Assembly: GCA_036924285.1 (NCBI GenBank)
Contig: JAYKYS010000005.1
Coordinates: 5,394,001-5,458,000 of the forward strand
DNA from: Asterella californica
Taxonomy: Eukaryota > Streptophyta > Marchantiopsida > Marchantiales > Aytoniaceae
Direction: 5' to 3'
DNA length: 64,000 bases
Below, piece by piece: positions 27,561 through 61,126 of the stretch. The translations under genes and the position numbers were made by a program. The notes below the pieces were generated by a model. The model made no database searches, had not been told where the DNA came from, and worked only from the letters and a program-made list of their open reading frames with translations. How positions within the stretch are numbered: position 1 is the first letter of the stretch; every line of letters begins with the position of its first letter.

Positions 27561-29839
27561 GTCTACAACAGCGTGATCAGGAGGTTCTCGACTCAGAGAT
27601 AAGATCACCTCTCTCGCAAAAGAAGAGACGACATGGAAGGCACTGCGGGAAGCCGCGGAAGCACAAGCCGTAGCAGAGAAGACGCAACGAGAAGAAGCAG
27701 AAGCCCGAGTAAAGGGACTTATGATGCAGACGGTGGAAGCACTTCGTAAGAAGTTCACGTTCACCGCGGTCAGTAGCTACATCTTCCCATGCTCCAGGAC
27801 CAGCGATCGAGAAAGATTTGGAGAAGGAGGAGTTCGACCTCGCTGTCCACTTGGTAGTGATAGTGCTGGAAGCCGAGAAGATCTCTGAAGAAGCCCGGGA
27901 AGACAAGGTGTCTTCTGAGAGACAAGAAGCAGAGTTGTCTTCTCAGGTGTTTCGACTGGAAGAAGTGACTTCCTCTAACCATTGTGAAGTCACCTCAGCT
28001 CTCAGCGTCAAACCAGTGGCGCAGAAGAGCAAGGAAGCATAAGTGGACTCAGCTTCCCAGAAGACACTTTTGTCTTCTGAAGCCGCACCAGAAGTCCACA
28101 TCAAGAATGTCGAGGAGGAAGCCACCTCAGTCACACCCGAGGTACCAGCAGGACTTCCCACTTTATCAAAGGTCGATTTAGGAGTTCAGGTAGGAGAGGA
28201 TCCAGTAAGGATAGCACCCGACGATCAAGAGTAGGCAACAAGTTAAGAAGACAGTTGACTTGCTAATTTTGATAAGAAACGAAGTATACTATTTTAGGGA
28301 GAGACAACTGCCCTTGTAATTTTAGATGACTGTCCATGTGACAAGGTAGGCAACGATAGGAGCAGAAAGTAAGTTTCCAAACTGAGAAGGGAACCGACTA
28401 CATGTGAGGTGGTGGCCTTCTGACAACGTCTCATAACCCTTGGCTGCGAGTGAGGATTGGAGGAGAACTCCCTCTTACGACTTAAGTACAGGAGTATAAA
28501 GTAGGACACAAAGTAAGATTTTACACACATGTGGTTACGCATAGATACACATTACACGTTCTACAGTGCACATTACACACATTATGTCTGTTGCTAGAGA
28601 CATACGAATAGATTTTGGAGTACATAGGAGGGGTATGCATTCCCGCTTCCAGCAGTGGATCGAAGATGTAGACAACAGTAGTGGACAGCCTAGAACAGAG
28701 AACGACATCATCGTGTAGTCTTGTTTCTAAGCTGATGTGTCGAGGGGTAGGAACAGGAAGTGGATGAAGTGAGCTTCCAGAAGCCAATGTACCTTCTTCT
28801 CGAGGAATTGATTTCAGATTTGAGTGCAGAAGCTTTGTCTGTGTCTTCTGGGCAGTGGGTTTCCTTGAATTCACACCCAATTGTGCATGGGAAGTCTTCT
28901 TCTTGAGTGACGGTGATTGTTACAAGTTGTGCAGAGTCGAAGCTTGTCTCATTCAGTGGAGCACTTCGGATCCACGTACGGATTGGCATAGGGGAGATTG
29001 GTCCTTGACGCCAGAGTAGTCGGAGCAACCACAGAAGAAGAAAGAAGCCTTCTTTTCACAGCAGAAGACGACATCCTCAAGTAGAAGACTGTGTAACTGT
29101 AAGCAAATTTGTGGTCTTCTTCCTCAAATTATTACAATCAGGGATGGCTTGTTAGTCAGGATCCGAACTAGAAGTCTGTCGGAGTCTTAATTTCTCATTT
29201 TCATCTTCGTTCCTCTTGTTTGGATTTTCTCTTCTTCCTCATCTTCTCTCACCTCCCATCTTCCTATCGTCTTCTAGTGAGCTTTCGAGACTTCTATTGA
29301 GCTTCCGTGAAGGTGAATGTCGTTGTAGTGCTGCAGGAAGACCGTTTCCGTAGACAGAAGCCTGAGAAGGCTACAAGGAGCATACACCCTGTGATTGATC
29401 TAACCCCGTTGGAAATTGAAAGAGCAATGCGTTATAAACAATGATAATTTGATGTCTATGAAGCAAGAGCAGTCTTATGGAGGTGGGAGAAGCCGAATTG
29501 AACTCCCAGAAGCCGAGAATTGCTTCGAGAAGACTATCGTGAGAAGACTGGAAGCCGTGACCTGGAAGCAAGAAACGTCTTCCCGAGTTTCTTAGTAGAT
29601 ATCTGTGTGATATTTTAGGTTGTAGTTGTTTGTTTAGGTCCAGAGCACCTTCTGAAGGATCTGGAAGCCGTGTGGTTTTGTGAGAAGACTGGATTTCTAG
29701 GTAAAACTTGTGTGTTTGTGTGTTTGAACAAATCTTAGAACTTAGAGCAGCGATACTTGTGCAAATCCTCTATGAGAACGATATCTTTTATGTAAATGGG
29801 CTAAAGGAAAAATCCTAAGACACTACATATAGTAGCACT

Positions 29840-29853
29840 CGGCGCCGCTGCCG
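29840..29853 (+). promoter_or_regulatory. Candidate primer binding site after giant LTR A
   Basis: CGGCGCCGCTGCCG matches the tRNA-Asp-type primer site of plant Tat/Athila elements (TGGCGCCGTTGCCG) at 12 of 14 positions, and both differences are C versus T. It begins 12 bp after the CACTACA end of giant LTR A. This supports A being a 5' LTR, although the spacing is longer than usual. Confidence 0.5.
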
Positions 29854-30358
29854 AAGATTTCATCTTAGTAACGATTGTTCTAAGCTTCTTGGATCAGTAG
29901 TTAGTTGCATTTTGAACTAACTTGGATTGTAGTTGAGTGTGTTGTGGAACTCTATCTTGCTAGAAGACAGAACCGCAGCCAAAAGCTGATGAGACACATC
30001 ACAGAGAACTGGAGAAGCCGCTTCCCTGCTTCCAAGAGCTTCTTGGAAGACTAGATCTTGGAAGATTGCAGTGAGTGCAACATGAAACAAGAGAAGAAGA
30101 CGTTTCGAACCTGTGACATGTTGTTCAGATCTCCAGTCTACCAGATCGAGTATTAGAAGAAGAGAGACATCTCTTCTCAACACTCTGGTGGATGCCTCCA
30201 ACTAGAAGAAGAAGCAGAAGACGCATGGATAAAGACCCTGAGTGGATACATTCACCCAACAAACCGCTTCTAGAGAGCAGCGCGTATCCCTGAGACACCA
30301 AAAGAAAGAAGAAGAGCTCATCTGATCAGTAGATTTGGAAAAGCCTTCCATCTCGAGC
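29854..30358 (+). other. Probable internal leader of the giant-LTR element
   Basis: The sequence lies between the candidate primer site and the cut end of the minus-strand D element. It is rich in GAAGA/TCTTC. A short open stretch begins at an ATG near 30220 (MDKDPEWIHSPNK) but stops after about 20 codons. No gag, protease or RT of this element was recognised, so its coding part is absent here or was displaced by the D insertion. Confidence 0.35.
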
Positions 30359-32918
30359 ATTATCTTACGGATCGCACTACATCAGACCACAACCCAGTAG
30401 TCCCTTTCTCTCTCTCCATCTCCACTTTCACTCCACAGGTAGCAGCATTCACAAGAGAAACAGCATGTGATGCTGATATCTCATTCACAAGTCTCTTCAT
30501 ACCACCCTTGCCAAAGTTGGTTCCCAACATCATCCCAGTCTCTCTCAGATGGATCTTACCATCTTTGAAGAAGATGAGATCCTTCCTCAATGCATCTGAA
30601 AACTCCCCACAATCTCTTCTTACATGGTCTAGGCTATCACACCATATACAACGATGAACAAAGCCTTCCCTCATCTGAGGTCTCTGCATAGCAGGCTGTA
30701 CATTCTGCTCCTTCTCTTCTAACCTAGTGAGCTTAAGCTTAAGCTCCTTCATACCCTTAATCAACTCATCAAGCGGTGAGTCTTCCTCTCTAGCAATTAC
30801 CACAGCGGGCTTAGTAGGCAACTGCTTGACAGGAATTATCAGAGGTGCTGCTTCACTTACCACCACCTTGTCTCTTCTTCTCTGTCTCTTGGCCAGCAAA
30901 GAAACAGCCTCTTCGACCTCCTTCCAATCAGTCTTCAATCCTCTCTCCTCACTCTTGTCTTCTAGCAACAGCTCAAGCTTCTCTTGAATAGTCACGTCCG
31001 CTGCCTGTAGGAAAAGCTCGGTCTTCTCCACCTCTAGTGTAAGCTTCTCTGTCCTAGAAAGCTGAGCATACTGACGATCAAACTCCCTTAACAACTCATT
31101 TACAGACAAACCTTTGTTAGGCTTCACCACCCACTCCAAGAACGTTCTCTTGGTCACCCTCTCTGAATCTTCAGTGTAATACTCCTCCTTCAAAGCTCGC
31201 ATAAAGCTCTCCCAACTCTGTCCTTGCTACTGCTTGAGCTCCCTCACACGCCCACGAATCTCAGGGACAACAGCAAGCTCAAAGTTCTCCACCATCTCCT
31301 TCTCAGGCACCTTGTTCACCTCCATCTCCCTAGCATAGTATCGCACATACTTGGAAATATCTGTACCCTTGAACTGGTCCATCTGGTGCACCACAGATTG
31401 CAACGCCTTGGTTGCTAACACCTCCTTCCTCTCTGTGCTCTGCTGCTGCTGCATAAACATGGAAAAAGCTTGGAACATCTTCATCGTAGCAGCATCAAAC
31501 TGAATAGGTTGCTGAGCAGCAGCAGCACCTCCACTTGATGATCCTTGGTTGGCCATGAGATTTGATCCTGTAACACTCTCAAGAAAACTCCCACCCTAGG
31601 TGTTTCACGTCGAGTTCACCAAAAGATAGTATGTCGGAGTGTGATCCGTCTACCTAGGAAAGCGCCAGGCTTCTGGCTGTGGTTGTTCACTCAAGAGGTT
31701 GGCTTTCAAGTTACAACAGGGGTTATAAACACTCACACAGATGTGTAAGATCTAGTAATATACCCAGAAGGCGAAATTCAGGTCTAGCTGGCAGTAATAG
31801 GATCCGGCGGTGAACTTTGACACTCACGGAGAGGAAAACTATGAAGGTTTAGACTTCTAAACTTCCCCTACATGCAAATGAGGTACTACTGAACTCACAG
31901 ACGAAGTTTCAGCCTGAGATCAAATTCTGACACAGAGATATGAACTGAAAAGTTTTGAGCAAGAAAACTACGGCAATTTCTGGTACCTAGATGGCTATTT
32001 CGACCTATAACAGGAGTTTGGCTCGATCAATTTTGAAGTTTCTTACAGGATTTGCAGTTCACAGCTTGCTGAACACTCCTGTGAAGTTGGGACTCCTGAT
32101 TGTTTGTAGAACTCCAGATCTCCTTCCTTGAAGTCGTTGCTCTAGATTAAGAGCTTTTCAGACCCCTTCGGCTTCAGCGGTCGCCCTGAATTACTCAGTC
32201 ACTCAATCGATGCGAAACTTTTTGGGAAATCGTAGCCCTGCTGGCAGAGAACACAACCTCGAAGTTTTGAAGCAATTTCCTCAAATCTGCTGCGAGTGAC
32301 ACTGAAAACCCTAAATCCAACAAAAGTGATTCAATTCTAGCACAATTCGAACTTCAATTGGTCATAACTTCGTCTTTATTGCATCAAATCGATCGAAAAT
32401 TTCACTGGAAGTGCTTGGCATGATGAGCTCTACCCTCCTGTGCTCTCAGATTTCAAAGATCTCCCACCAAATGCTCGAACTCCACTCTAGAGCTCTGTTT
32501 CTAAATTTAGAGTTTAACAAAAGACAAAAACAGACCAATGGGAGTTCATAGCTCCACTTGGTTGTCCTTTAGTACCATAAACCACGTGGAAACTTAGTTT
32601 TACTCATAGGCTACCACGTCAAGCCCCTTAGAGTGCCAGCGTAAAACTTAAATTACTTAAAACGACACGTAGCCCCGAAAAATAACTTAAATCAGCTAGA
32701 AAGCGTGCATGGGCGACACGCAAATACAACCCATGAGCTTAAGCCCTATCAACATGGTAATCAACCTACTAAGACTCAAAATAGTGTTAACACCGTATGC
32801 AAAGGTGTCAAACATATACATAAACGACTAGAAGTAATATAAGCTAACTTCTAGAACTACTAAACTCAAGCGTCGGAGTAGAAATATAACATATAGCCGC
32901 CAAGTAGCGCAACAACGA
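30359..32918 (-). mobile_element. Family D gypsy element, minus copy (gag plus leader/LTR)
   Basis: Contains gag (31556 to 30360) and about 1.3 kb of leader/LTR (32918 to about 31590). The leader/LTR is a reverse-complement match to the plus copies at 33034-34500 and 58100-59356. Protease and pol are missing: the element ends at 30359 against giant-LTR internal sequence. The first ~130 bp of the LTR, as seen in the plus copies, are only partly recognisable here. Confidence 0.75.
30360..31556 (-). pseudogene. Family D Gag, one amber stop
   Basis: Retrotransposon capsid protein. It starts at 31556 (MANQGSSSGG) with a Q/A-rich head and a helical capsid part (FKGTDISKYVRYYAREMEVN) close to the plus D copies. 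The zinc knuckle CIWCDSLDHVRRDC (CX2CX4HX4C) lies near 30600-30645. A single TAG at 31227-31229 interrupts an otherwise continuous 398-codon frame in a CAG-TAG-CAA context, so a CAG to TAG change is likely. The C-terminal end (LWSDVVRSVR) corresponds to GWRDLVDAASMR in the plus copy, which continues further. Confidence 0.8.
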
Positions 32919-33033
32919 GAAGCTTCTAGGTGAACGCGTTGATGCTTCTCAGGAGCAATTTTCTGATATTTTCAGTTATTGAGCGTGAGATCTACTATCT
33001 GAATGATATGGAGTTGAAGATTTACTTGCACGC
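32919..33033. repeat. Short block shared with 42857-42964
   Basis: About 110 bp from 'aagcttctaggtgaacgc' to 'gaagatttacttgcac' separates the two head-to-head D copies, and the same block with scattered changes lies at 42857-42964. It is probably old target sequence (leader of a G3-like element) into which the D element was inserted. Confidence 0.6.
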
Positions 33034-36000
33034 TGTTGTGATATGAATCATTTCACATAGTGAATAATTCATTTCTCTATCACGAGTTAGTCTCTCTGAG
33101 TGAAGTTAAGAGTCAGAGAAGACGATTCTAGAGATTGTGAGCATTGACGGCTACGTGTTATGCTTCTACTTCGACACTTGAGAGTTAGTAGTCGTAGAAG
33201 TTAGCTTAATATTACTCCTAGTCCTTTATGCATATGTTGACACCGTTGTGTTATTTGTTTTGAGTCCGAGTAGGTAGATAGTATGCTATTTATCTTGTTC
33301 AAGTATTTGCACGCTTGTACAAGTGAATTCATACTTATCTTTGATGTTCAAAGTACATAACTTAGGTTTACCATGTTGATAGAGTTTAAGTTCATGGGTT
33401 GTATTTATTTATCGCCTATGCACGCTTTCTAACTGGTTTAAGTTTTATTTCAGGATTGCGTGTCATTTTAGATAGTTTAAGATTTACGTTAACACTTTAG
33501 GGAGCTGACGTGGTAGCTTATGAGTGAAGTTAAGTTATTACGTGGATTAGGGCACTAAAGAACAGCCAAGTGGAGCTATGAACTCCCATTGGTCCATTTT
33601 TATTTTTGTAAAACTCTAAACTTAGAAACAAAGGTCTAAAAGGGAGTTCGAGCATTTGGTGAGGACACTGCAAAATCTGAGAGCAGAGGAGGATAGAGCT
33701 CGTCGTGCCAGTCATTGTCAGTGAAATTCTTGATCGATTTGGAGCAATAAAGAAGGAGTTATGCCAAATTGAAGTTCGGATTGTGCTAGAATTGCATCAC
33801 TTTTGTTGATTTTGGGGTTTTCAGTGTCAATTGCAGCAGAATTGAGAAAATCGCTTCAAAGCTTTGTGGTTGCGTTCACTGTCAGGAGGGCTACAACTGT
33901 CCAAAAAGTTTCAAGTCATTTGAGTGAGTGAGTAATTCAAGGCGACCGCTGAAGCAGAGGGGGTCTGAAAAACTCTCAATCTAGAGCAGCAACTTCAGAA
34001 TTCGAGATCTGGAGAACCGTGTACAACCACCAAGCCCAACTTCACAGGGGTGTTCAACATGCTGTGAACTCCAAGTCCTGTAAGAATGAGTGAAGGTGAT
34101 AGAGCCAATTCTCTGTTCTAGGTCGAAATAGGTATCTGGGTACTAAAACTACCGTAATTTTTTTACTTAGAACTTTTCTGTCCACATCTCGGTGCTAGAA
34201 TTTGATCTCATGCTGAAACTTCGTGTGTGTGTCCAATGGGACCTCTTTTACATGTAGGAGAAGTTTAGAAGTCTAAACCTTCACATATTTCCTATTCTTG
34301 AGTGTCAAAGTTCACTGTTTGACTTTATCATTACTAGTTATCTGATTTTTGTTTCCTGAACATATCAGAGGAGCCAAGAGACCTGTATGAGTATTATACA
34401 GTGCCAACTTGTAACCTGAAGCCTACCCTTTGAGTTAGCAACCACAGCTAGAAGCCCAACGTTTCCTTGAGTAGACATATATAGTCTTCACGGTCATCCC
34501 ACAGTCAGAAGGTTCCATCTTTCTTAAGCCGTACAGCGACATCTGCATCTTGTCTAGATACGGCTGAAATCTTGAAGACGCTTGCGGCCTTGGTCCAACA
34601 ACATCCGATTGTTGGACGGGGTGAGTTAAAATCCATCAAGGCTTTGCAAGCTATTGTGAACAGATGTGGAAGGTTTGAAGGTAGAGATATTTCTAGATAT
34701 CTGCGTGAGTGTAGAGGAGAGATGAAACTGGTTAGAGTTACTGATGTTGAGATGATAGCAAGTTTTGAGTTAGCTGTCATTCCTGAGTTGCGAGGACCAA
34801 GTTAGGGATGTACAGAGAAGAAATCTCGGAATCTGGAGAGTTTTGAGCGATCTCTTCGAGAGGAGTTTCTGGAAGAAGATTCAGAGAGAGTTACTAGGAG
34901 GACGTTTTTGGACTAGGTTGAGCAACAACCTGGTCACATGATGAGCTTGAATGGGTTGCTGAGAGAGTTTGATCGGAGATACCGGCAATTTTCAACTCTT
35001 GAGCGCATAACCGTAGATGCTAGGAGGACAGAGCTTTTCCTGCAAGCTACCGATGATGCTACAGCAGATCGATTATGCTTTATGTTAGCATATTGATCTG
35101 CTGAAGGAGGTGTAGTGACGAAGGATTTCTCCTTTTGCCCATTTAGTATACAAGATATCGTTCCCACAGAGGATTTGCACAAGTAACGCTGCTCTAAGTT
35201 CTAAGATCTGTTCAAACACACAAACACACGGGTTTTGTCTAAAAAGCCCGTCTTCTCACAAAACCACACAAACCAACACGTCTTCCAGACACGCCAAATG
35301 GTGCTCTGGACCTAAACAAACAACTACCAATTACAATATCACACAACTATTCACAAAGAAGCTCGGGAAGACGATCTTCCTGCTTCCAGGTTGCTTCTTC
35401 CGGTCTTTTCGATACCGTCTTCCCGAAGCGATTCTCGTCTTCTGGGGGTTTAGCTCGTCTTCTCACACCTCCAGAAGGCTGTCTTGCTTCGCAGAAGTCG
35501 ACTAGTAACAGTCATTACACCTTATTCTCACACTCACATTTCAATCGGGTTAGATTAATCACAGGGTGTATGCCCCCTGTAGCCTTCCCAGGCTTCTGCC
35601 TACGGAAGTTGTCTTCCTACAGCACTACAACGGCATTCACCTTCACGGAAGCTCAATAGAAGTATCGGAAGCTCACTAGAAAAAGGTAAGAAGATGAGGA
35701 AGATGGGAGAAGATGGGAGAAGATGGGAAGAAGAAGAAATCCAAACAAGAGAAACCAGGATGAAAAAGGGCAATTAAGATTCCGACAGGCTTCTAGTCCG
35801 GATCCTGACTAACAAGCCATCCCTGCTTGTAATAGTTTGGGGAGGAAGACAACAAACGTGAGTACTGTGGCACCGTCTTCTACTCGAGGATGTCGTCTTC
35901 TGTTGCGAGAAGAAGTCTTCTTTCTTCTTCACTTCGCTGCTCTGACTGCTCTGTCTTCTGTGATCACTTACCCAGAAGACCGTTCGTACGTAGATCCCAA

Positions 36001-36750
36001 ATGCTCTACTGAACGAGTCAAGCTACACTCCACAACTGTTGACATTCACCGCCACTCAAGAAGAACACTTCTCATGCACAATTGGGAGCGAATTCAATAC
36101 ATTCCACCACCCAGAAGACATGAGCGAAGCTGCTGCACTCAAATCCACAATCTATTCCCTGAGAAGAAGTCACAATGGCATTGGGAAGCTCACTCCCGCT
36201 ACTTCCTGCGTCTACTCCTCGACACACCAGCCTAGCTAACAGGACTGCACGAGGATGCCGTTCCCTGTTCCTGGACTGTCCACTACCTCTATCTACATCT
36301 TCGAACCACTGCTGGTGCGAGTATGCAGACCCCTCCTGTATATTCCAAGACTATTCGTATGTTTCCAACAACGGGTGTAGTGTGCTAAGACTATCTCTGC
36401 TCTAATGTGTCTCGCCTGCCTGTAGAATCGGTGTGTATGTTCAGTTACTGCCGAATTCTACAGTACTGGCAGAGCTCTCAGAGAGATTTTCTCCTACCCT
36501 GCTATCCTACTTAACCATCTGCCTCGAGAGTCAGGGGAGGCAACCACCAGGGAGAGAGAGAGAGGCGCTGACAAGAGGTTGTCACCTCACATGCATGCGG
36601 TCCCTCTTCCCAATTAGCCCTCCACTGTGTTACTCCTACGCTACCTATGCTGCCACATGGGGTCCTAACTATTTTTACATAGAAAACTGCCACCCTTAAG
36701 ATAGCATGTCCAATCCTACTAAATCTGGAAGTGTCAATTGAGTTTGCTAA

Positions 36751-38235
36751 CTACTCTGATTGCTCGGTGGCAATCTCTACATGATCTGCTCCTACCGGAG
36801 CTACTACCTCGACTTCTGATGGGCTGGGAAGCCCTGCACTTACCTCGGGTACCACTGAGGTAGCTTCCCTCTCCTCGCTCTTCGCTGGCCCTGCTGTTTC
36901 TGCGGCTGCGTCTTCCTCGGCTTCGACTTCGGAAGACGGAATGGTCTTCTGGGAAGACGAGTCGAATGGTGCGTCTTCGGTCTTCTGAGGCACAGATGCA
37001 GTACTAGGGACCATGGCGATCTCATAGGGGTCCAGGGAAGTCGCTTCCTCCACGCGGAATACTTGGGAAGACGGCTCGTCTTCATGTCTTCCAGAAGACA
37101 TCATGTCTTCCGGGGCGTCTTCTGGAGTCTTCTCGTCTTCCAACGCTGTCACCACCAAGTGTACAGCGAGATCGAACTCCTCCTTCTCCATTCCGGATCC
37201 AGTCGAGGGTGCTGGGCTTGGGAAGATGCGGTTGCAGGTGTCGGAAGTGAGGGAAGACCATAAAGTGTCTTCACTCCTTCTATCTGTCTATCCAGGTACC
37301 TGAACATGCTATCTCTGCATTCCACCAACCTCGTCTTGGACCCGCTGTCCCATTCCCTAGCTAAGGTAAGTAACTTCTTACCCGCGGTGAAGTGAACTTC
37401 TTCCGAAGCGCTTCTACCGACTAAGCTAGCATCTTCCGAGCACGAGCTTCCGCTGCTTCCCTCTGCGTCTTCTCCACTGCAGCTCGCGCTTCTGCGGCTT
37501 CTCGCTGCATCTTCCAAGTGGTCTCTCTTCTGCGAGGGCAGTGATCTTCTCCCATACTCGGAGAACTTCCTGATCATGCTGCTGCACTCGCGTCTGCAAC
37601 TCCTGGTTGCTCTTACGAAGTTGCATCGACTCCTTGGCAGAAGCGGCTGCTTCCGCCTTGTACCTGGCTGCAAGCTTCTCCGTGGTGCGGAGACTAGCTT
37701 CCAGCGACTCCGTCTTCTGCTGGCTGTCTTCCTGTCTCAGCAAGGTGCGCATGCCGAATCCAGGCTGTAAGGGCTTCTCCTGTGCCCTCGCTCTCCTTTC
37801 CAGCAACTCCATAGCGGGCTGGATCTCCTTCTGGAAGTAGGCACTGAACTCCTCCAGTCGTCTTCCTGCAGAAGACAAGTTCATCCCCACCACTCGCTCG
37901 ATGGTGTCGACTTTGTCTTCCAGAGGCAAGGGAGCCTCTTCCACCACTACGGCCTTCATCTTCTGCGCACGAGAAGAAGCTACTCTTCTCATCTTCCGGG
38001 GTGGAAGACTCCTTGTGGCAGGAGCGGCTCTCCTCTTTGCGCTTCCTCGCATCGCAGTAGGAGTACCCATCCATCCTTCGTCTTCTGGAGTCTTCGGAAG
38101 ACTCCCAGATGTTACAGAAGCTGTCTTCTGCTCCGATCGGGTACTCAGCAAGTCTTCCTCCGAGTCCGACTCCGATCCTGAATGGATGAGGGAGATGGGT
38201 GTCCTCGGTACACTTCTGTGACCCATCTTCCTCAC
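36751..38235 (-). pseudogene. Giant-LTR protein B, linker, coiled coil and C-terminal domain
   Basis: Continuation of the gene that starts at 39041. From 38235 the frame carries an acidic Ser-rich linker (SGSESDSEED), a basic patch (SAKRRAAPATRS, PPRKMRR) and a long coiled coil (about 37560-37900; LEASLRTTEKLAARYKAEAAASAKE). The frame shifts near 37540. The conserved block FTAGKKLLTLAREWD...FRYLDRQIEGVKTLYGL follows in another frame (37250-37400). It then shifts again into MEKEEFDLAVHLVVTALED (37191) and an E/P/S-rich tail that stops at 36751. Copies A and C show the same order, so this is one protein broken by indels. The architecture (helical domain, acidic linker, coiled coil) recalls plant proteins annotated as putative gypsy-type transposon (Transposase_28), but that family link is only a suggestion. 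Confidence 0.7.
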
Positions 38236-39041
38236 TGGCGTGGCGTCTTCCGACCCACTAGACTCGTCTTTTGGTGAGAGCCGGGTCTCAGCTGTGGCAT
38301 CAGAGTGGGAGGGGGCGTTGCTGCTGTCTCTCGGTCATCGTCTTCTGAGGTCTTCTCCTTCACCTCCTGTCGCTCCGTTGGCCCATACACTGCCAGCTGA
38401 TCTTCCCTAAGATCCCCCATGGCTACATACAAGTAGCAGAAGAAGGGCGTCAGATGTCCTCCCGCCGGGGTACCTAAGTATGCTAGCTCCGTCTGTACAT
38501 AGTTGTGGATGTACGCGCCCCAGTAGATTGGCACTCTGTCATCCCACACTGATTCCAGGAACTCCACGTCCTGATCTCCTAAGTACCTCGTCTTCTGCGC
38601 TTTTCCCTTGGGGAAAAGATGCAGAAACAACTTCGCTAGAAGTCGCTTCTTCGGCTCCCGGTAAGACTCTATCTTCCAACCGTTCCTCCCCTGCCTGTCT
38701 TCCACGAAAAGGCAGGTGGTACTCCCAGGCACATGCCATGAACTCACAATCCTAGGCAAGATCTTCTTCTCGTACCAATATCCTCGGTTCTCGGTCACAG
38801 GCCTGTTAAACGCCTTACGCCACCAGTCTTCTGTCCAGGAAGATGGTCTTCTCCGAGCAACTCCTGCCTTTGCAGGTACACGGTTACGCGGTGGTAACGC
38901 GGCCCATACCTCCTCCAGAAGCCCTTGATCTGCGAGGTTCCAGTCCCACAGGAAGAAGTCGAGACCCAACTCCTTGAGGAAAGGAGTGGCCTCGGCCAAT
39001 TCTGTCGCTGGTAACACCAAACCTCGTGGATGCATCGACAT
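38232..39041 (-). CDS. Giant-LTR protein B, N-terminal domain (269 codons open)
   Basis: Starts at ATG 39041 (MSMHPRGLVLPATEL). It is a single globular region rich in Trp, Leu and charged residues, with motifs FFLWDWNLAD, SSWTEDWWRKAFNRP, GRNGWKIESYREPKKRLL, LFLHLFPKGKAQKTRYLGD and HLTPFFCYLYV. No signal peptide or membrane segment is evident. It ends in an acidic, Pro-rich stretch at 38232. Alignment with copy A (near 21510-21535) shows that B lacks about 19 bp between two AGAAGA-like repeats; this deletion throws the frame into a stop and separates it from the linker/coiled-coil part. I do not recognise its function. Its position inside what appears to be an LTR is unusual. Confidence 0.7.
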   Translation of the reverse strand: MSMHPRGLVLPATELAEATPFLKELGLDFFLWDWNLADQGLLEEVWAALPPRNRVPAKAGVARRRPSSWTEDWWRKAFNRPVTENRGYWYEKKILPRIVSSWHVPGSTTCLFVEDRQGRNGWKIESYREPKKRLLAKLFLHLFPKGKAQKTRYLGDQDVEFLESVWDDRVPIYWGAYIHNYVQTELAYLGTPAGGHLTPFFCYLYVAMGDLREDQLAVYGPTERQEVKEKTSEDDDRETAATPPPTLMPQLRPGSHQKTSLVGRKTPRQ

Positions 39042-39934
39042 ACCTGGAAGATCTGCTGCACTAAATCACAAGCACCTACTAGGAGCTGAAGGCTCAATCC
39101 TTCCCGAGTGCCCACAGTCTAGCTTCCACTCTCAGAAGACGAAACTAGTCTTCCAGAAGACAGCTACTCCGTCTTCCGGGATTCTAACAGTACTTCCTAG
39201 ATAGCTCTCGTCTTCCGAGCTATATCTAAACAATCCTATCTAAGCAAGGCCTCGCATGGATTACCAAGAAGACAACCCACCTTGCATTACATCCTACTTC
39301 CTATCAGAAGATACAAGATATGCGAGAAGTAGAGTATGAGAAAGGTTCAGAAGATGGTTGCGGGCTCCTGCGGTGACAGTGGCCTCTGGGAAGACACTTG
39401 GGACAGCTTCCGATTCAATGTCGTTCTCGGAAGACCTCCCGAAGTCAGACTTTCCTTCACTGGTCTCACCTGTCTTCTTCTTCCTACGCGCAGTCTATCC
39501 TCACAACAGACTCAAGACATGTGCACTCTGTTCTTCTGACTTCTCACCTCTCATACGCACTCAGAAGAAGTTTGCTGCATGATGGGAAGACATGACCCTC
39601 GACCATTCTCTCCGGATTCTGCCAGCAATACTTCTCACAACTCTCTTCTAAGTTCGGGAAGAAGAAGGAATAGGCTGCTAGAGGTCGGACAGAAGAGACC
39701 CGAAATGGACCCTCACGTATTCTCGCTCATCTTGCCAGCCTTTCAGTCTTCTAGTCTCTCTAGGAAGATGTGGAGTTGAGAAGCTTGGAAGATCGGGAGG
39801 CACAGGCCTAGTTCCAAAGTTCCAACTTCTCGAAATAACACAACAACTCACCACACCACTCAGGCTTCGTACCAAGGCGCTCTAAACACAAAAGCAAAGC
39901 AAATCCACTCTTGATACGAATTATGTTCAGTCGA

Positions 39935-40020
39935 CTTCCGAAGACAGTCTTCCGAAGATGTCTTCCGAAGACAGTCAAGTTCAAGAAGCGTCTTCCGAAG
40001 ATGTTCCCATCTTCCGAATC
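39935..40020. repeat. Array of CTTCCGAAGA palindromes in giant LTR B
   Basis: Four exact CTTCCGAAGA motifs start at 39935, 39949, 39962 and 39992, with a partial fifth (CTTCCGAATC) at 40011. They lie in the non-coding leader of the giant LTR. A related cluster of GTCTTCCGGAAGAC-like motifs is at 40815-40910, near the 5' end of the unit. Copy A has CTTCTTCCGAAG and CTTCCGGGAAG in the matching place (near 14703-14745). Confidence 0.85.
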
Positions 40021-41749
40021 GTCTTCTATTCCAAGTTTCGGGGGTAGAGAGGTAAGGGGGTAGAGAAATTGATAGTTGGGTTCGCCAATTTGAAGACTAG
40101 GGGTAGGGAAGCTCGAATTGAGCTCGGGAAGAAGCAAGGAGATATCTTGACAGAAATTGGGCAGCGCTTCCGCGCCCAATGTCTCAACCAGAAAGAATGG
40201 GGGGTGAGGTAATCGATCAGACTGCCTGCACACAATCAAGGAAGCGCTGGGAGTACCAAGAAAATGACGAGAAGAAGTGGGAAGGGGAAAAGAACAGGGG
40301 GAAGAACCTCTACAGTCTTCTTCTGCTCCCGAGTTGCCTTCGACCTCCGCGCGCTTCTGGCTCTTGTACTAGCTTTAAATGCGACTCCTCTCGAATGCGC
40401 CTGCTGTCAATTTCGGTCCACACCTCGATTCTACCTTCGCTTCTACTCGCCACTCTCCACTGTCAACTTCTCGGAAGCTCCACAGAAATGCCTTCGCTCT
40501 CTCTGCTGTTTGTGCTCCCGCAATCCGATTTCACCTTTCGCCTAGCTGCCAACTTACTCTCTCCTACCTCGATGTCTTACTCGATTCCTCTCTCAATGCT
40601 AGCTCGAAGTTCACTCTCTCAATCGATCTTCTTCAGGCGCACTGTGCTGCGGGAAGTTGGAAGGTGGTTAATGTGCTTCCTCACGCATCTTCCCCGCAGA
40701 TTAGGGGTTTCGACCCTAGGTGTCTTCTTCGACCTACCTACCACCTGGGTGCTTACTTAGTAGGTACACCTACTTGTTTACCTGAAAACTCGTGGTCAGG
40801 CCTTCGTGATCGCTGTCTTCCGGAAGACAGGTGTCTTCCGTCGTCTTCCCATCTTCTGAAGACGCAACTGAGAAGATGATCTTCCGAAGACGGTCGTCTT
40901 CTGAAGAAGTCAACTTCTTATTACAAACAGCTCTTAAGATCATCTTCCTGTTAAGGAAGACGTAACCTTAAGTAACAACGCTTCTTCAGTTATATAAACA
41001 AGTCATTATTCTTAAAAATTTCAAAAATTGTGCATCCTGTAATTTGTGGGCACCACAGGAGGTGTTACTATGGACTGGGGGAGAGTTGAGGATGCCGTGG
41101 CTGTTCTAACAAGGCAGAGACGCGAGAGATAGTGGCTGTAGGAGGACGACCGTTTGTGGACGTGATCACTCAACTTTATGCTGCTCCTCAAGTATAGTAG
41201 CCTCTAGCTCCTGCTCCCAGACTTGTTGTCCGGGCTGCAATTCCTTTGATGCTAATTGTGTCAGTTTCTACACAAAGAGCACCTGTTTAGAGACCCGCGG
41301 AGAACCATGATCAGCAGAATCAGATCGAAGACCTTATCTAGCAGATGCGTGAGTTGAAGGTGGAGCTAGTTGGCTTGCAGAGGGAACAGCCACCGGCGCT
41401 TGCTGTTGCACGTCCAAGAGGTGCTCTTGTTCATAGATGTATATCGCTGATCATCGTGGTATGTTCAAAAGTTGCAAATAGAGTTGCAGGCGAAAAGTTA
41501 CTTGGGGTTCTTCTACAAGATTTTTGATACCGAGAAATTTACCATAAATCTGAGTGACTTCCAAAAATATGTTTTAGATTTTTTTCATGTAGATTGTAGT
41601 ATATAGTATTTGTTTGCATTTTAAATGCACAAGAGAGCATGTCTAGAGAAAGTTATGGCACTTCATGTTAGCAAAGAAAAGATGAAATACCGTAGTTTTC
41701 TAGCATATCAGCTTAGAAACTGGTCTCTAGAACCAGTTGTGAGATCGGC

Positions 41750-43059: not shown

Positions 43060-43841
43060 TCACAGCTAGAAGGTTCCGTCCTTCTCAAGAAACTCTCGCC
43101 TCGACAACGCCTCCTGCTCAATATAATCATTATACACCTAGAGACATGCTAGTAATGTACAGATCAAGACGCCCTGGCAACCTTCTTCATCACAATGACC
43201 TCTAAATCCTCTTCCTGGAGCATGTAACAATTGTAGAGAGATAGGACACTGGTGGTCCACCTGTCCTCATCTGAGAAGACAGAGAAGATAGATTGGGCAA
43301 GTGCCCTTGTGTGAGAATTGTAAGGAAGCATGACATTTCATAGGAAATTGCTCTCAGATCCTACGCCCACGACAAATGGTTAGACTTGCAGATACCACAG
43401 CTCCTGCAGAAGCCGCATAAGCTTCTAAGCTCGAGCTAGCAGTGGTACAACATATCTCTGTAGAAGAAGAAGATCTTGGAGATTGCACGGATTGTCTACA
43501 CATAGAGGAAGACGAACCAGACCCTGAGAAGCGCACAAGAAAGGAGCCTCAGTTACAGAAGACGACTGCAGCTTAGAAGACGAAGCCACTTGAGGAACCG
43601 TCATCTTTTACTTTGGCGGATGGCACTGTTTGGAGCCTTTGCCCGGATTCAGATAGCTAACCTCCAGAAGAAGTCATGGATGAGGTAGTATTCAAGGTGA
43701 GTACTAGAAGTAGAGGGAAGTCAGAATCTCGTCGGAAGGAGACTAAGAAGAAGAAGCGATCATGCAAGAAGAGCTGGAGAAGCGATGGAAGAGTACAGCA
43801 GCTTCTTCCACCGACCACGGCAGCTCCCGTCCCACGGGAAC
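43060..43841 (+). pseudogene. G3 Gag C-terminal remnant with two zinc knuckles
   Basis: A CX2CX4HX4C knuckle (CNNCREIGHWWSTC) is encoded near 43228-43270. A second one (CENCKEA-stop-HFIGNC) follows near 43312-43356 with a TGA inside it. Several stops and frame changes lie around them. The frame then enters an acidic, Lys-rich stretch (EEDEPDPEK..., near 43465-43760) before the G2 insertion at 43842. Confidence 0.65.
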
Positions 43842-44756
43842 TGTAAACCCTCCGCGGTCCTATCGATCAACTACCCCCCGATCTCTCAATCTCCACGGTC
43901 GTCATCCACGAATCTTTAACATGTCGGGCCTGTCTCTCACTCAAGGGTCACCTCTGATGGCTTTGATGGAAGCACACCATGAATCTTGAAGAGAAAAATG
44001 CTAAGTTCACTCATTCATACACCCACAAACTTATCAACTAAAAATCTCCTTAAACTCATCAACTAAAATCCTCCATTCTACCGACGTCTCTCAAGTTCTC
44101 ACATGCTAAAAATATCCCACACTCTCTATATTACTCAAGTTGTCATTACGACGATGTGAAAACAAGGATGAGGAGCTCTTCTCTACTCCTCTATTTATAC
44201 ATTCTAGGTTTTTACTTTGGTACCCTCCGGTAACTCAGCCGTAACTACTTTTACCGAGTTTTACTAAGATATTACTTAAGGTAAAAGCATTAATCACATG
44301 GGCTTCTTATCTTTTCACATGGGCTTATTCCTTCAAAGTCAACAACTTCTAGAAGGATTCTAGAATATTCTCAAGGAATCTCGAATTTCCACCCCCCTCT
44401 ACACTAGGACCCACTAAAAAGGAAACATGTGGAATCTCTTCTTGTTTTTAATGCCCACAAAGTCCACAACTTTAATCCAACCACTAATATCAAGTCAAAA
44501 AAGAGATAAGGGATACTTTCCACCTCCTTTCTACCTTTTAGACAAGATGACAAGATAGTAGTGCTCACTCTTTAGCAAATATCTGAATTCTACCAAAAGT
44601 ACAGCTAAGTTTAACCATAACTAACTTTTAGCTAGTCATGACTAACTTGATAACTCCTTAAAGTACTTTGGCAGCAAATAAACATTCTCAACACTTAGTT
44701 ATAACTAAACACCTTACTAATAGACAAACTTCCTATGTGTAACATAGGTCGTTACA
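43842..44756 (-). repeat. G2 3' LTR
   Basis: Direct repeat of 51678-52590. It is 915 bp, with TGTAAACCC at one end and GTCGTTACA at the other. Because the element reads on the minus strand, this is the 3' LTR. Confidence 0.95.
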
Positions 44757-44768
44757 TTTTACCCCCGG
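44757..44768 (-). promoter_or_regulatory. G2 polypurine tract
   Basis: The minus strand reads CCGGGGGTAAAA directly before the 3' LTR start TGTAACGACC. The position and composition fit a polypurine tract. Confidence 0.7.
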
Positions 44769-44825
44769 ACTAAATTTTCACTCCGTCCTCGGAGTGAAGA
44801 GAGAACTTTCGTCGATGAAACAACT

Positions 44826-46568: not shown

Positions 46569-46583
46569 TGCCTTTTTTAGCTC

Positions 46584-55436: not shown

Positions 55437-58099
55437 TGTAGTGTCGCAAGATTACTCCTTTTGTCCATTTAGTATACAAGATTTGTTCCCACAAAGGATT
55501 TGCACAAGTAACGCTGCTCTAAGTTCTAAGATCTGTTCAAACACACGGATTTTGCCTAGAAATCTCGTCTTCTCACAAAACCCACACGTCTTCCAGACTC
55601 GCCAAAAGGTGCTCTGGATCTAAACAAACAACTACTAACTAAAATATCACACAACTATTCACGGAGAAGCTCGGGAAGAAGCGCTTCCTGCTTCCAGATC
55701 ACTACTTCCGGTCTTCTCAGTATCGTCTTCCCAAAGTAATTCTCGGCTTCTGGGGGTTCAACTCGGCTTCTCGCACCTCCAGAACACTGTCTTGCTTCGC
55801 CGAAGTCGACTAGAATCGGCTGTTACACCTTACTCACTCTTACATTCCAACGGGTTAGATTAATCACAGGGTGTATGTCCCCTGTAGCCTTCCCAGGCTT
55901 CTGCCTATGGAAATGATCTTCCTGCAGCACTACAACGACATTCACCTTCACGGAAGCTCAATAGAAGTCTCGGAAGCTCACTAGAAGAAGGTAAGAAAAT
56001 GAGGAAGATGAGAGAAGATGGGGAAGAAGAGAAAAATCCAAACAAGAGGAAACAAGATGAAAAGGAGAAATTAAGATTTTGACAGGCTTCTAGTCCGGAT
56101 CCTGACTAACAAGCCATCCCTGCTTGTAATAGTTTGGGGAGGAAGACAACAAACGTGTGTACAGTTGCACCGTCTTCCACTTGAGGATGTCGTCTTCTGC
56201 TGTGGGAAGAAGGCTTCTTTCTTCTTCTCTTCGCTGCTCCGACTACTCTGTCTTCAGGGATCCCTTATCCATCCGACCGTCCGTACGTAGATCCGAAGTG
56301 CTCTATTGGACGAGCCAAGCTGCAATTCCACAACTGCTGACAGTCACCGCCACTCAAGAAGAACGCTTCTCATGCACAATCGGGAGTGAATCCAAGAAAA
56401 CCCACCACCCAGAAGACATGGACAAAGCTTCTGCACTCAAATCCGTAATCCATTCCTCGAGAAGATGTCACATCGGCATTGGAAAGCTCACTCTCTCTAC
56501 TTCTTGTGCCTACTCCTCGACACAACAGTCTAGTCAACAAGACTGCACGAGGATGCCGTTCCCTGTTCCTAAACTGTCGACTACCTCTATCTACATCTTC
56601 GAACCACTGTTGGTAATGAACATGCAGACCCTTCCGATATAATCCTAGTCTATTCGTTTGTCTCTAACATCGGGTGTAGTGTGTGTGTAACTAACTTTCC
56701 TACTCTTCGATCATACTTATGTCTTCTACCACGAGAAAAACAGAGGAGATGACCACCAGAGAGAGATGGGCGTTGTCAGAAGGCTGCCACTCCACATGCA
56801 AGCCATTTCCCTTCCTGATTAGCCATCCACCTTGTTGTTCCTACGCTACCTATGCTGCCACATGGTATCCTAACTAATTTTACACTGAAAACTGCCACTC
56901 TTTAGATAGCATGTTCGGTCCTACTAAGTTTGGAAAATGTCTCCGTCGGTTGCGTGTACTTTCTACTCTGATTGCGAGGAGGCAATCTCTACCTGATCTG
57001 CTCCTGCCGGAGCTCCTAACGCGGCTTTTGATAAGCTAGAAAGCCCTGCAAACACCTCGGGTAACACTGATGTGGCTTCCTCCTCATCGTTCTTTACTGG
57101 CCCTGCTGTCGCTGCTGCTGCTTCTGCTTCGACTTCTGCTTCGGCTTCGGCTTCTGCTTCTGCTTCTGCTTCGGAAGACGGAAGCGTCTTCTGGGAAGCG
57201 GAGTCGAGTGGTGCTTCCTCGCTCTTCTGGAGCATTGGTTTGGTACTAAGGACCATGGCGACCTCATAGGGGTCCGGAGAAGTCGCTTCCTCCACGCGGA
57301 ATACTTGGGACGACGGTTCTTCTTCCTGTCTTCCGGGGCTTCTTCCGAAGTCTTCTCGGCTTCCAACGCTGTCACTACCAAGTGCACAGCGAGGTCGAAC
57401 TCCTCCTTCTCCATGTCGGCACCGATCGATGGTACTAAGGCTGGGGAAGATGTAGTTACCGGTGGCGGAGTCGAGGAAAGTCCATAGAGTGTCTTCACCC
57501 CCTCTATCTGCCTATCCAAGTACCGGAACATACTCTCCTTGCACTCTACCAACATCTCCTTGGACTCATCGTCCCATTCTCTAGCCAAGGTAAGCAACTT
57601 CCTACCCGCGGTGAAGTTGAACTTCTTTCGAAGCGCTTCCACCGACTGTGCTAGCATCTCCTGTGCACGAGCTTCCGCTGCTTCTCGCTGCATCTTCTCG
57701 GCTGCAACTCGTCGGCTTCTGCGGCTTCCCGCTGCATCTTCCATGTTGTCTTCTCCTCTGCGAGGACGGTGATCTTCCCCCGCACTCGGAGGACCTCTTG
57801 GTCGTGCTGCTGTAAACGTGCCTGCAACTCCTGGTTGCTCTTCCTCAGTTGGGTCAGCTCCTTGGCAGAAGCGGCTGCTTCTGCCTTGTATCTCGATACG
57901 AGCTTCTCCGTGGTGCGGAGACTAGCTTCCAGCGCTTCTGCCTTCTTCTGGTCTTCTTCTTGACGCATCAAGGTGCGCAGACCGAATCTAGGCGGTAAGG
58001 GCTTCTCCTGAGCCTTTGCTCTCTTCTCCAGCAACTCCATAGCTGGCTGGATCTCTGAGTGGAAGAAGGCGCTGAACTCTTCCAGTCTTCTTCCTGCGG
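55437..58099 (-). mobile_element. Giant LTR copy C (continues beyond the window after D copy 2)
   Basis: Begins TGTAGTGTCGCAAG, as copy B begins at 35111. It follows B through 3' non-coding sequence (55450-56960) and into the C-terminal and coiled-coil coding part. At 58100 it is interrupted by family D copy 2 (TGTCGTGATGTG), so its 5' half should lie to the right of the window. The left flank is AAGCA inside the G3 integrase. Confidence 0.8.
56963..58090 (-). pseudogene. Giant-LTR protein, copy C, coiled coil and C-terminus
   Basis: Homologous to 36751-37870 of copy B. The coiled coil (about 57740-58040; LEASLRTTEKLVSRYKAEAA) is followed by EALRKKFNFTAGRKLLTLARE, FRYLDRQIEGVKTLYGL and MEKEEFDLAVHLVVTALEAE. 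The E/P/S-rich tail ends at 56963. The frame changes near 57710 and 57320. The tail contains an Ala-Glu run encoded by a repeat of gcttct/gcttcg hexamers (57112-57178) that is much longer than in copy B. The N-terminal part lies beyond the D insertion. Confidence 0.7.
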
Positions 58100-59486: not shown

Positions 59487-61126
59487 ATGGATCGCAAGAG
59501 CGGAGCTGCTGCTGCTTCTAAGACTGGAGCATCAACGTCTACTGCTGCACCGTCAACTGCACATGCGTCTTCTACAACGACATCTGCATCTGGTCTGGAC
59601 ACGGCTGAGATCTTGAAGACGCTTGCGGCCCTGGTCCAACAACATCCGATCGTTGGAAGGGGTGAGTTAAAGTCCACCAAGGCTTTGCAAGCTATAGTGA
59701 ATAGGTGTAGAAGGTTTGAAGGTTTGAAGGAAGAGATATTTCTAGATATCTGTGTGAGTATAGAGGAGAGATGGAGCTGGTTAGGATTACTGATGCTGAG
59801 ATGATAGCAAGTTTTGAGTTAGCTGTCATTCTTGAGTTGCGGGACCAAGTTAGGGATGTACAGAGAAGAAATCTTGGAATCTGGATGAGTTTTGAGTGAT
59901 CTCTTCGAGAGGAGTTTCTTGAGGAGGATTCAGAGAGAGTTACTAGAAGGACATTTCTAGACTGGGTTGAGCAGCAACCCGGTCGTATGATGAGCCTGAG
60001 TGAGTTGCTGAGAGAGTTTGATCGGAGATATCGACAACTTTCAACTCTAGAGCGAATAACTCTATATGCTAGGAGAACAGAGCTTTTCCTGCAAGCTACC
60101 GATGATGCTACGGCAGAACGGTTATGTTTTATGTTGGCTGATCGATCTGCTGAGGGAGGTGTTACTATGGATTGGAGGAGAGTTGAGGATGCTGTGGCTG
60201 TACTGACAAGGCAGAGGAGAGGAAGAGTGGCTGTGGGAGGACGTCCGCTTGCAGAAGTGGTCACTCCATCTTATGCTGCTCTTCAAGTACAGCAGCCTTT
60301 GGCCCCTACTCCCAGACCTGTTGTCCCAGCTGCAGTTCCTTTGATGCCAGTTGTGCCAGCTCCGGCACAAACGGCACATGTTCAGAGACCTGCGGAGAAC
60401 CATGGTCAACAGAACCAGATTGAAGACTTAATTCGGCAGATGCGAGAGCTGAAGGTAGAGTTAGCTGGATTGCAGAGAGAGCAGCCACCGGCGCCTGCTG
60501 CTGCACGTCCAGGAGGAGCTCTTGTTTGTAGATGTATCTGGTGTGACAATCCTGATCACTTCCGGGGAGACTGTCAAGAGCTCACAGCTGCTTTGCAAGA
60601 TGGTGTGGTTCGCTACCAGAACGGTAGGCTGCACCTTTCTTCTACTGGAGAGCCGTTGAGCACGCAGTTTGGACGAGGAGGTATGAGGAGTCTACCTCAG
60701 ATTGCTGCGGCTGCAACAGCCACTGCGTTAATGGCACCGCTGGTAAATTCTGATGTATATGCTGGGCATATTGAGGTCTCTTCTAGTCCTACATTGCTAG
60801 ATAGGACTGCAGAGAAGAGTGTGGCTCCAGTTCCTTCTGAGATACTGAAGAGAGGAGCCGAGTCTATTCGTAGGGTCACAGGATGGAGAGATCTTGTAGA
60901 TGCTGCTTCTATGAGAGCATTCCTGGATGTAGATAGACATGTTCATTGGCAGGATGCTTCTGTGGAAGAAAAGAGGCGGCGAGAAGCCTCTGAACTTGAT
61001 ACTGGAGTTCCTGAGGAGACTGAGGATAGACGGAGAGTCACAAGGAGACGAGCGGCTCTTCCTGAGGACATCCTGTCTACTTCTGCAGCTCCTCCACCTG
61101 CACCAGGTCCTATGGAGGACGTGTAG
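59487..61126 (+). pseudogene. Family D Gag, copy 2
   Basis: ATG at 59487 (MDRKSGAAAASKTG) follows a purine-rich leader. An Ala/Ser/Thr-rich head precedes the capsid part (ILKTLAALVQQHPIVGRG). An 8-bp net insertion formed by repeating GGTTTGAA near 59715 shifts the frame, and a CGA to TGA change gives a stop near 59898 (compare 34838 in copy 1). From 59987 the frame is open for 379 codons (SLSELLREFDRRYRQLSTLE) and includes the zinc knuckle CIWCDNPDHFRGDC near 60533-60575. It ends at TAG 61124-61126, in the same frame as the protease that follows. Confidence 0.8.

What the first reader, a model, noticed from the sequence alone, without database searches (positions are those of the whole stretch)
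35111..41057. A ~6-kb LTR that appears to carry its own protein-coding gene
Copy B has TG...CA ends, a perfect GGAGG duplication, and no pol, primer site or internal terminal repeat, so it looks like a solo LTR. Copy A ends at the same base and is followed 12 bp later by a 12/14 match to the tRNA-Asp primer site, as expected for a 5' LTR. The unit holds a long gene (39041 to 36751) conserved in three copies. LTRs that encode a protein are rare; the superantigen of a mouse retrovirus is the textbook case. I know of no plant example with a coiled-coil protein of this kind. The LTR interpretation is inference; the boundaries and duplication are seen directly.
Basis: partly seen in the sequence, partly recalled or inferred. 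Interest (0 to 1): 0.88.

Follow-up and report, generated by a model that had tools for sequence, protein, structure and literature searches.

The report
Retrotransposon LTR carrying a conserved gene
A many-copied jumping element in this genome keeps a large, selectively maintained protein gene inside each of its two repeated ends, a place that is normally non-coding, so that even a lone end left behind in the genome still carries a copy of the gene, intact or broken.

Summary
Unit B (35111-41057) is a solo LTR: an unfilled paralogue of its insertion site (about 60155) has GGAGG once. Of 30 genome loci read at each end, 9 continue into a tRNA-Asp-type primer site and gag, and 7 are preceded by pol and a G-rich tract. 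Five of five solo units and two full elements with readable flanks have perfect 5-bp duplications. On C71 two 5842-bp LTRs, 4 differences apart, flank Ty3-type gag-pol. Copy A is the 5' LTR of an old nested copy.

The gene lies in sense at LTR position 2017-4307. B's copy is frame-broken; five other copies, chosen for openness, each hold a 770-codon ORF. Differences between copies favour third codon positions (dN/dS 0.24-0.38 in eight of nine comparisons); non-coding LTR parts, and the two LTRs of one element, show no such bias. Selection seems to act while the element replicates. No protein relative was found. Transcription, function and host are unknown, and no solo LTR with an open gene was shown.

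The parts
35111..41057 (-). Unit B, a solo LTR of 5947 bp; sense strand minus, LTR 5' end (TGTGGTGCC) at 41057, 3' end (CACTACA) at 35111
   Evidence: ends and duplication; empty paralogue; orientation from genome copies
35106..35110 (.). target-site duplication GGAGG, left copy
41058..41062 (.). target-site duplication GGAGG, right copy
36751..39041 (-). the LTR gene in B, sense with the LTR (LTR positions 2017-4307); frame-broken here, 770 codons in five open copies elsewhere
38235..39041 (-). N-terminal ORF of the gene in B; no Pfam, PDB-sequence or large-database relative found
37429..38334 (-). middle ORF of the gene in B, with a basic stretch and a predicted 75-residue helix (pLDDT 89-96 over most of it), coiled-coil type
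35111..36281 (-). 3' part of the LTR, without a long ORF but well conserved in A, C and C71
14560..29827 (+). Copy A, an old 5' LTR of the family (pieces 14560-14772, 20610-22213, 27564-28221, 28683-29827) split by a gypsy-type and a copia-type insertion
29840..29853 (+). primer binding site of copy A, 12/14 to the recalled tRNA-Asp-type site
   Evidence: family site
29841..30366 (+). start of copy A's internal region (82% to L023), breaking off at 30366
43107..43841 (+). family internal region continued (end of gag and start of pol by position), 83-86% to L076
52591..55435 (+). pol pieces of a family internal region, 82-85% to L076, breaking off at 55435
55437..58097 (-). Copy C, truncated LTR in antisense to the preceding pol, holding the gene's C-terminal part and the LTR 3' part
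59573..60537 (+). paralogue of the sequence that B inserted into, with a single GGAGG (empty site)

Best explanation
Unit B is a solo LTR of a many-copied Ty3/gypsy retrotransposon (18.1 kb on C71 and 18.6 kb on C102; a third, on C313, spans 24.2 kb) whose LTRs, about 5.9 kb, each contain in sense orientation a gene for a 770-residue protein. SHOWN from sequence: LTR boundaries, 5-bp duplications, primer site, flanking gag-pol, near-identity of one LTR pair, the gene in both LTRs of a TSD-bounded element, an open frame in five copies at separate places, and codon-phase bias between copies but not between the two LTRs of one element. INFERRED: the protein is an accessory factor that helps the element replicate, probably self-associating through its coiled coil, perhaps in the nucleus; the well conserved 3' part of the LTR is the regulatory core (R-U5), so that in the genomic RNA the gene would sit downstream of pol, the place of env-like ORFs in other plant elements; and the gene came to lie in U3 when plus-strand priming moved upstream of it, after which reverse transcription copied it to both ends. 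Loss of the interior by LTR-LTR recombination then leaves solo LTRs such as B that keep the gene, which decays without selection.
For: Empty-site paralogue and duplication. Genome searches with the two 500-bp ends: 40 rows at 98-100% and 41 rows at 94-100% (one 50-bp piece 92%), the scored part of 2579 and 3512 unvetted first-look candidates. Of 30 LTR 3' ends read, 9 continue into the same internal sequence with the primer site; of 30 LTR 5' ends read, 7 are preceded by the same G-rich tract. Just inside lie gag (PF03732, L023) and, by eye, the integrase end of pol, whose frame in L045 runs to about 60 bp before the LTR. C71: LTRs 5842 bp each, 4 substitutions, internal 6423 bp; its interior has gag, RT, RNase H and an integrase zinc domain. 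Duplications: 5 of 5 solo units with both ends in hand, and 2 full elements, C313 (ACCAA) and C102 (CTATA). Gene over its whole 2313 bp in both LTRs of the C102 element, with 0 and 1 gap positions, both with stops. Of 143 scored matches to the N-terminal ORF, 94 had no stop inside and 22 had no stop plus an open frame of 796-800 aa. Five chosen open copies: 770 codons each; third codon position most changed in 10 of 10 pairs. dN/dS against L073: A 0.24 and 0.32 (dS 0.80, 0.73), C 0.27, B 0.32, L069-L072 0.30-0.38. Controls: no phase bias in non-coding LTR parts (4 of 4 comparisons, p 0.18-0.61) or between the two LTR copies of the C102 gene (17/15/16). Long helix in B's middle ORF.
Against: No RNA, protein or functional evidence; U3, R and U5 were not mapped. 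A TATATAA-like motif lies at LTR position about 62 in B and C71 but not in A; if it is the promoter, the gene lies in R or U5, at the 5' end of the genomic RNA, against my placement. The G-rich tract (GTGAGGGTGGGCGTA) is not a classical polypurine tract. The C71 copy has dN/dS 0.68, as a decayed copy would. Two of four young-copy comparisons show no significant phase bias alone (L069 p 0.09, L070 p 0.27). The five open copies were picked for openness, and only for L073 did another call place it inside a unit (LTR end at C1:34403195). None of the five solo LTRs was shown to hold an open gene: B's is broken, one on C313 has an open frame of 334 aa, the other three have no match among the 143 listed. 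For four of the five full elements whose outer edges I fetched, the far LTR end was not at the predicted place. No relative with the gene outside the LTR was found or could be searched for, so the origin story is untested.
Confidence: 0.8

Rival explanations
1. The gene lies in R/U5, at the 5' end of the genomic RNA: transcription starts near the TATA-like motif at LTR position about 62, and the protein is translated first, before gag, somewhat like the ORF0 of Retrosat2.
For: TATATAA-like motif at about 62 in B and C71; the first 210 bp of the LTR align with copy A while the next 1.7 kb do not, as would be expected of a leader followed by an intron-like spacer. Retrosat2-type elements with long LTRs have an ORF0 upstream of gag-pol (passages of PMC3485330).
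Against: The motif is not conserved in copy A. A leader of about 1.9 kb before the ATG would have to be spliced or bypassed. The 3' 1.16 kb of the LTR is well conserved without a codon-phase signal, which fits a regulatory core there.
Confidence: 0.3
2. A neutral passenger: a host or other sequence captured in the LTR and merely copied along.
For: No recognised domain; many copies are broken: 49 of 143 scored matches have a stop inside the match.
Against: Codon-phase bias and low dN/dS between copies as far apart as dS 0.8, with flat controls in non-coding parts and within one element.
Confidence: 0.05
3. A DNA transposon or other cut-and-paste element with TG...CA ends and its own gene.
For: Imperfect inverted ends (TGTAGTG / CACCACA) and 5-bp duplications alone would allow it.
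Against: Units occur in direct pairs with gag-pol, a primer site and a G-rich tract between them, with 4 differences in 5842 bp in one pair. The pieces of the gene product that were scanned match no transposase family.
Confidence: 0.02
4. The gene is kept by the host: a domesticated gene family spread by the element.
For: Open copies are many among the best-scoring matches, and solo LTRs keep the gene, if broken.
Against: Differences between the two LTR copies of one element, that is, mutations since insertion, fall evenly on codon positions, 17/15/16: no sign of selection after insertion at that one locus.
Confidence: 0.05

Closest known systems
Mouse mammary tumour virus sag (superantigen gene in the LTR)
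   Same: Protein-coding gene inside the LTR of a retroelement, so present at both ends; sag genes were mostly found in solo LTRs, and LTRs are called ordinarily non-coding (passages of PMC4667437).
   Different: Here Ty3/gypsy gag-pol, probably in a plant, and a 770-residue coiled-coil protein against a smaller membrane protein (recalled). No Pfam match for the N-terminal domain at E up to 10. Position relative to U3, R and U5 not mapped here.
Additional (extra) ORFs of plant LTR retrotransposons: env-like ORFs, Grande gene23, Retand ORF4, PvRetro13 ORF2, Ogre and Athila ORFs
   Same: An accessory ORF beside gag-pol; one product is nuclear and one has an SMC domain (PMC7264820, parts 1 and 2 of 3 read). 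Non-chromovirus elements with extra ORFs also reach LTRs of about 5 kb (passages of PMC6317226).
   Different: [quoted passage not shown] here the ORF is in the LTR, and the internal region (6.4-6.7 kb) is filled by gag-pol, with pol ending about 60 bp before the LTR in L045. No match to the Pfam models of plant mobile domain, Transposase_28 or Athila ORF1 (N-terminal part).
Retrosat2 family of grasses (long LTRs, ORF0)
   Same: LTRs over 3 kb and an extra ORF in a large plant LTR element (passages of PMC3485330).
   Different: ORF0 lies upstream of the gag-pol ORF and is not described as lying in the LTR in the passages seen.

Membership tests
LTR of an LTR retrotransposon | TG...CA ends and short target-site duplication | tested here: met
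   5 of 5 solo units with both ends in hand (B included) and 2 full elements have perfect 5-bp duplications
LTR of an LTR retrotransposon | direct pairs flanking gag-pol | tested here: met
   pairs on C71, C43, C102, C313; internal 6423 bp on C71 and 6714 bp on C43; Pfam gag, RT, RNase H, integrase zinc domain on C71
LTR of an LTR retrotransposon | primer binding site just inside the 5' LTR | tested here: met
   9 of 30 LTR 3' ends continue TATAGTGAGGAA(C/T)CATTTT plus TGGCGCCGCTGCCGGGGAT or a variant; the tRNA-Asp identity is recalled, the genome's tRNA was not searched
LTR of an LTR retrotransposon | polypurine tract just inside the 3' LTR | tested here: inconclusive
   7 of 30 LTR 5' ends share GTGAGGGTGGGCGTA, G-rich but not a classical run
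LTR of an LTR retrotransposon | U3, R and U5 with start and polyadenylation sites | not testable with these tools
   needs RNA data
Ty3/gypsy retrotransposon | gag then pol in the order RT, RNase H, integrase | tested here: met
   on the C71 interior: gag in the first ORF; RT 712-871, RNase H 960-1064, integrase zinc domain 1195-1250 in the second
OTA (Athila/Tat) clade | phylogenetic placement of RT, RNase H, integrase | not tested
   no reference set here; a tRNA-Asp-type primer and no second RNase H among the Pfam hits of the piece scanned only suggest Athila (recalled)
MMTV-like LTR superantigen | gene product related to Sag | tested here: not met
   Pfam scan of the N-terminal 254 residues at E up to 10: no family; B's middle ORF and C's C-terminal piece at E up to 1: only two matches far below cut-off, AvrM-A E 0.033 and LSU E 0.041
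Plant extra-ORF families (plant mobile domain, Transposase_28, Athila ORF1) | Pfam match | tested here: not met
   none at E up to 10 for the N-terminal 254 residues, none at E up to 1 for B's middle ORF and C's C-terminal piece; a distant kinship below hmmscan's reach is not excluded
DNA transposon | transposase and no paired copies around gag-pol | tested here: not met

The most novel reading that the evidence does not exclude
A plant-type Ty3/gypsy element has moved a needed accessory gene wholly into its LTR, so that it is duplicated at every insertion and outlives the loss of gag-pol. Solo LTRs would then form a large population of self-contained genes that could act in trans, helping or interfering with their parent elements: a second, protein-coding mode of life for solo LTRs. 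(Lowered from a first estimate of 0.35 because none of the five solo LTRs in hand was shown to hold an open gene.)
Probability: 0.3. Interest if true: 0.88.

Novelty: new variant of a known kind. Interest (0 to 1): 0.78.

Why it matters
LTRs are treated as non-coding regulatory ends. Here a 2.3-kb gene under selection makes up about 40% of a 5.8-5.9-kb LTR, and one full element carries two copies. If the protein is made, solo LTRs need not be inert scars: some could be gene copies, which would change how relics influence living elements, and reverse transcription would have a built-in second copy of an accessory gene. The contrast between codon bias among copies and its absence after insertion makes the idea testable by sequence alone in other genomes.

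Tried and rejected
Orientation is ambiguous in the window alone (TG...CA on both strands); I first took the plus strand as LTR sense and corrected it from the genome copies. I first noted copy A as lacking a duplication and lying next to a foreign gag; it reads better as the 5' LTR of an old element whose interior is cut up by later insertions. Protein searches: N-terminal ORF of B, residues 1-260 and residues 535-665 of the L073 protein, with 1102, 2385 and 1786 candidates, none at E up to 0.001. PDB by sequence with B's N-terminal ORF: none at E up to 5. AlphaFold of the N-terminal ORF without an alignment: pLDDT 35, not used. Rfam on 35000-41200 at E up to 0.1: none. ARAGORN: no tRNA gene in the window. 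Literature searches for an ORF inside a plant LTR (open-licence PMC only; lists capped, for example 25 of 506, 15 of 49 and 12 of 90; for most hits I saw only title and start of abstract): no plant case seen. Two papers opened for the phrase 'LTR-encoded protein' or 'LTR ORF' used it for something else (passages, PMC13195028, PMC4016481). Counts of LTR-primer-site junctions and a search with a copy-A peptide for distant subfamilies could not be run; the genome search machine stayed busy.
Full report
WHAT WAS CLAIMED AND WHETHER IT IS THERE. Unit B, 35111-41057, has TG...CA ends and GGAGG on both sides. The flanking sequence on the left (34532-35113) and right (41058-41442) matches, at 89% and 83%, one continuous stretch at 59573-60537 of the same window, which carries GGAGG once. 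B is therefore a 5947-bp insertion with a 5-bp duplication. The primer-site match near copy A is at 29840-29853; by itself it is near chance expectation, and it became convincing only with the genome copies.

IT IS AN LTR. The window lies in a 516.7-Mb genome held without a name. Searching that genome with the two 500-bp ends of B gave 40 rows at 98-100% and 41 rows at 94-100% (one 50-bp piece at 92%); the tool's first-look candidates, not vetted, were 2579 and 3512. Thirty loci of each end were read. Among the 30 at the 35111-type end, 9 continue into one and the same sequence: TATAGTGAGGAACCATTTT (one base different in L026), then TGGCGCCGCTGCCGGGGAT or a variant, a primer site of tRNA-Asp type (the tRNA identity is recalled). 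Among the 30 at the 41057-type end, 7 are preceded by one and the same G-rich stretch ending GTGAGGGTGGGCGTA. Inside the first junction lies gag (PF03732); inside the second, by eye, the integrase end of pol, whose frame in L045 runs to about 60 bp before the LTR; both read in the same direction. That fixes the sense strand: minus for B, plus for copy A.

Five single units had both ends in hand with no family interior on either side, B among them; all five have perfect 5-bp duplications. Two full elements had readable outer flanks, C313:7466022-7490177, 24.2 kb (ACCAA), and C102, 18.6 kb (CTATA); both have perfect duplications. I fetched outer edges of five full elements; in four (two on C1, one each on C52 and C43) the far LTR end was not at the predicted place, so those LTRs differ in length or carry insertions. 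On C71 the two LTRs are 5842 bp each and differ at 4 positions; the 6423 bp between them hold gag, RT, RNase H and an integrase zinc domain in Ty3/gypsy order. Upstream of the first C71 LTR the same G-rich tract occurs, which suggests an LTR-internal-LTR-internal-LTR array. On C43 the internal region is 6714 bp (coordinates, junctions).

THE WINDOW RE-READ. Copy A (14560-29827, plus strand) is a 5' LTR broken by a gypsy-type element (about 15217-20608) and a copia-type element (22222-27563). Its interior starts with the primer site and matches the family up to 30366; family interior continues at 43107-43841 and 52591-55435, always on the plus strand. That these pieces belong to one element is inference from order and strand. 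Between them lie other elements, one of which received B. Copy C (55437-58097) is a truncated LTR in antisense that starts where the family pol sequence breaks off, at 55435.

THE GENE. In B it spans LTR positions 2017-4307, in sense, but its frame is broken. A protein search with B's N-terminal ORF scored 143 matches of 10165 unvetted candidates; 94 of 143 had no stop inside the match, and 22 of 143 had also an open frame of 796-800 aa. These are the best-scoring, hence probably young, copies. Five of them, chosen for openness, were read: each has an ATG-to-stop ORF of 770 codons. For one of the five, L073, an LTR end of the family lies about 3 kb away (C1:34403195); for the other four I did not read the LTR ends. 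Both LTRs of the TSD-bounded C102 element carry the gene over all 2313 bp, with 0 and 1 gap positions and with stops in both. None of the five solo LTRs was shown to hold an open gene: B is broken, the one on C313 has a 334-aa open frame, and the other three have no match among the 143 listed.

SELECTION. Third codon positions are the most changed in 10 of 10 pairs of the five open copies. Against L073, dN/dS is 0.24 and 0.32 for the two parts of copy A (dS 0.80 and 0.73), 0.27 for C (dS 0.48), 0.32 for B, 0.30-0.38 for L069-L072, and 0.68 for the C71 copy (a simple counting method). Phase tests: A p = 4e-12 and 0.008, C p = 6e-6, L071 0.007, L072 0.0003; L069 and L070 not significant (0.09, 0.27). 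Non-coding LTR parts show no phase bias in 4 of 4 comparisons (p 0.18-0.61). The two LTR copies of the gene within the C102 element, taken to be identical at insertion, differ by 17/15/16 in the three phases. The simplest reading is that the gene is needed while the element replicates and drifts after insertion.

THE PROTEIN. Residues 1-230 or so: a domain of unknown fold; no Pfam match at E up to 10, no PDB sequence match, no relative at E up to 0.001 in three searches of about 5.8 billion proteins, which find only relatives sharing short exact words. B's middle ORF has two Pfam matches far below cut-off, AvrM-A (E 0.033) and LSU (E 0.041), which I take for coiled-coil noise. Then comes a charged linker with a basic stretch (RKMRR near residue 355, with KRR before it by eye), possibly nuclear, and long helices: AlphaFold on B's middle ORF, without an alignment, gives helices of 47 and 75 residues, the longer at pLDDT 89-96 over its last 60 residues. 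A home-made, uncalibrated heptad score is high in windows starting at 470-505, which hold no proline or glycine; it is nearly as high near residue 722, where proline is frequent. The C-terminus looks acidic. The N-terminal model was useless (pLDDT 35).

HOW IT MOST LIKELY WORKS. Shown: position, sense, conservation, codon bias. Inferred: an accessory protein, self-associating through its coiled coil, that aids a step of the replication cycle. Two layouts are possible. In the first (my choice) the well conserved 3' part of the LTR holds the start and R-U5, the gene is in U3, and in the genomic RNA it follows pol, the place of env-like ORFs in plant elements (PMC7264820). It would have entered the LTR when plus-strand priming shifted upstream of it. 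In the second a TATA-like motif at LTR position 62 starts a transcript with the gene in front of gag. Only RNA can decide.

COMPARISON. The nearest analogue in position is MMTV sag; PMC4667437 (passages) says that LTRs are ordinarily non-coding and that most sag genes found were in solo LTRs. [quoted passage not shown] passages of PMC6317226; Retrosat2 ORF0, passages of PMC3485330). In the searches I saw no plant LTR with a conserved gene inside; that covers open-licence PMC papers only, and capped lists.

Noticed in passing
30363-34918 and 58211-64000: A second Ty3-like element (gag-like ORF with a CIWC zinc knuckle by eye, a weak protease match below cut-off, RT and RNase H at 62707-63999), present as inverted arms (31129-32903 against 33144-34918) next to B and again after copy C; B inserted into its gag-like part.
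   Followed up: partly
35111-36281, 28683-29827, 55437-56578: The 3' 1.16 kb of the LTR has no codon-phase signal but is less diverged (C71 against A: 200 of 1137) than the gene (L073 against A: 353 of 1455): strong non-coding constraint or mosaic ancestry.
   Followed up: partly
22222-27563: Copia-type element nested inside copy A's gene, LTRs of about 232 bp differing by 3.0%.
   Followed up: no
43839-52590 and 15217-20608: Gypsy-type elements of one family (92% alike); the first has LTRs of about 0.9 kb differing by 2.3%.
   Followed up: no
L074, L076 and L075 (C71:484930-503440): Possible tandem LTR-internal-LTR-internal-LTR arrangement with 4 differences between the two LTRs read; the gag and pol frames are in register and separated by a single stop.
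   Followed up: no
G000:C32:1138537-1139325: One match to the N-terminal ORF lies in an open frame of 1200 aa, longer than the usual 796-800.
   Followed up: no
13990-14039, 13085-13118, 14227-14265: Near-perfect palindromes of 50, 34 and 39 bp shortly before copy A.
   Followed up: no
11532-12626: 364-aa ORF with PPR repeats, likely a host gene or part of one.
   Followed up: no
51014-51387: 190-bp unit repeated twice inside the gypsy-type element.
   Followed up: no
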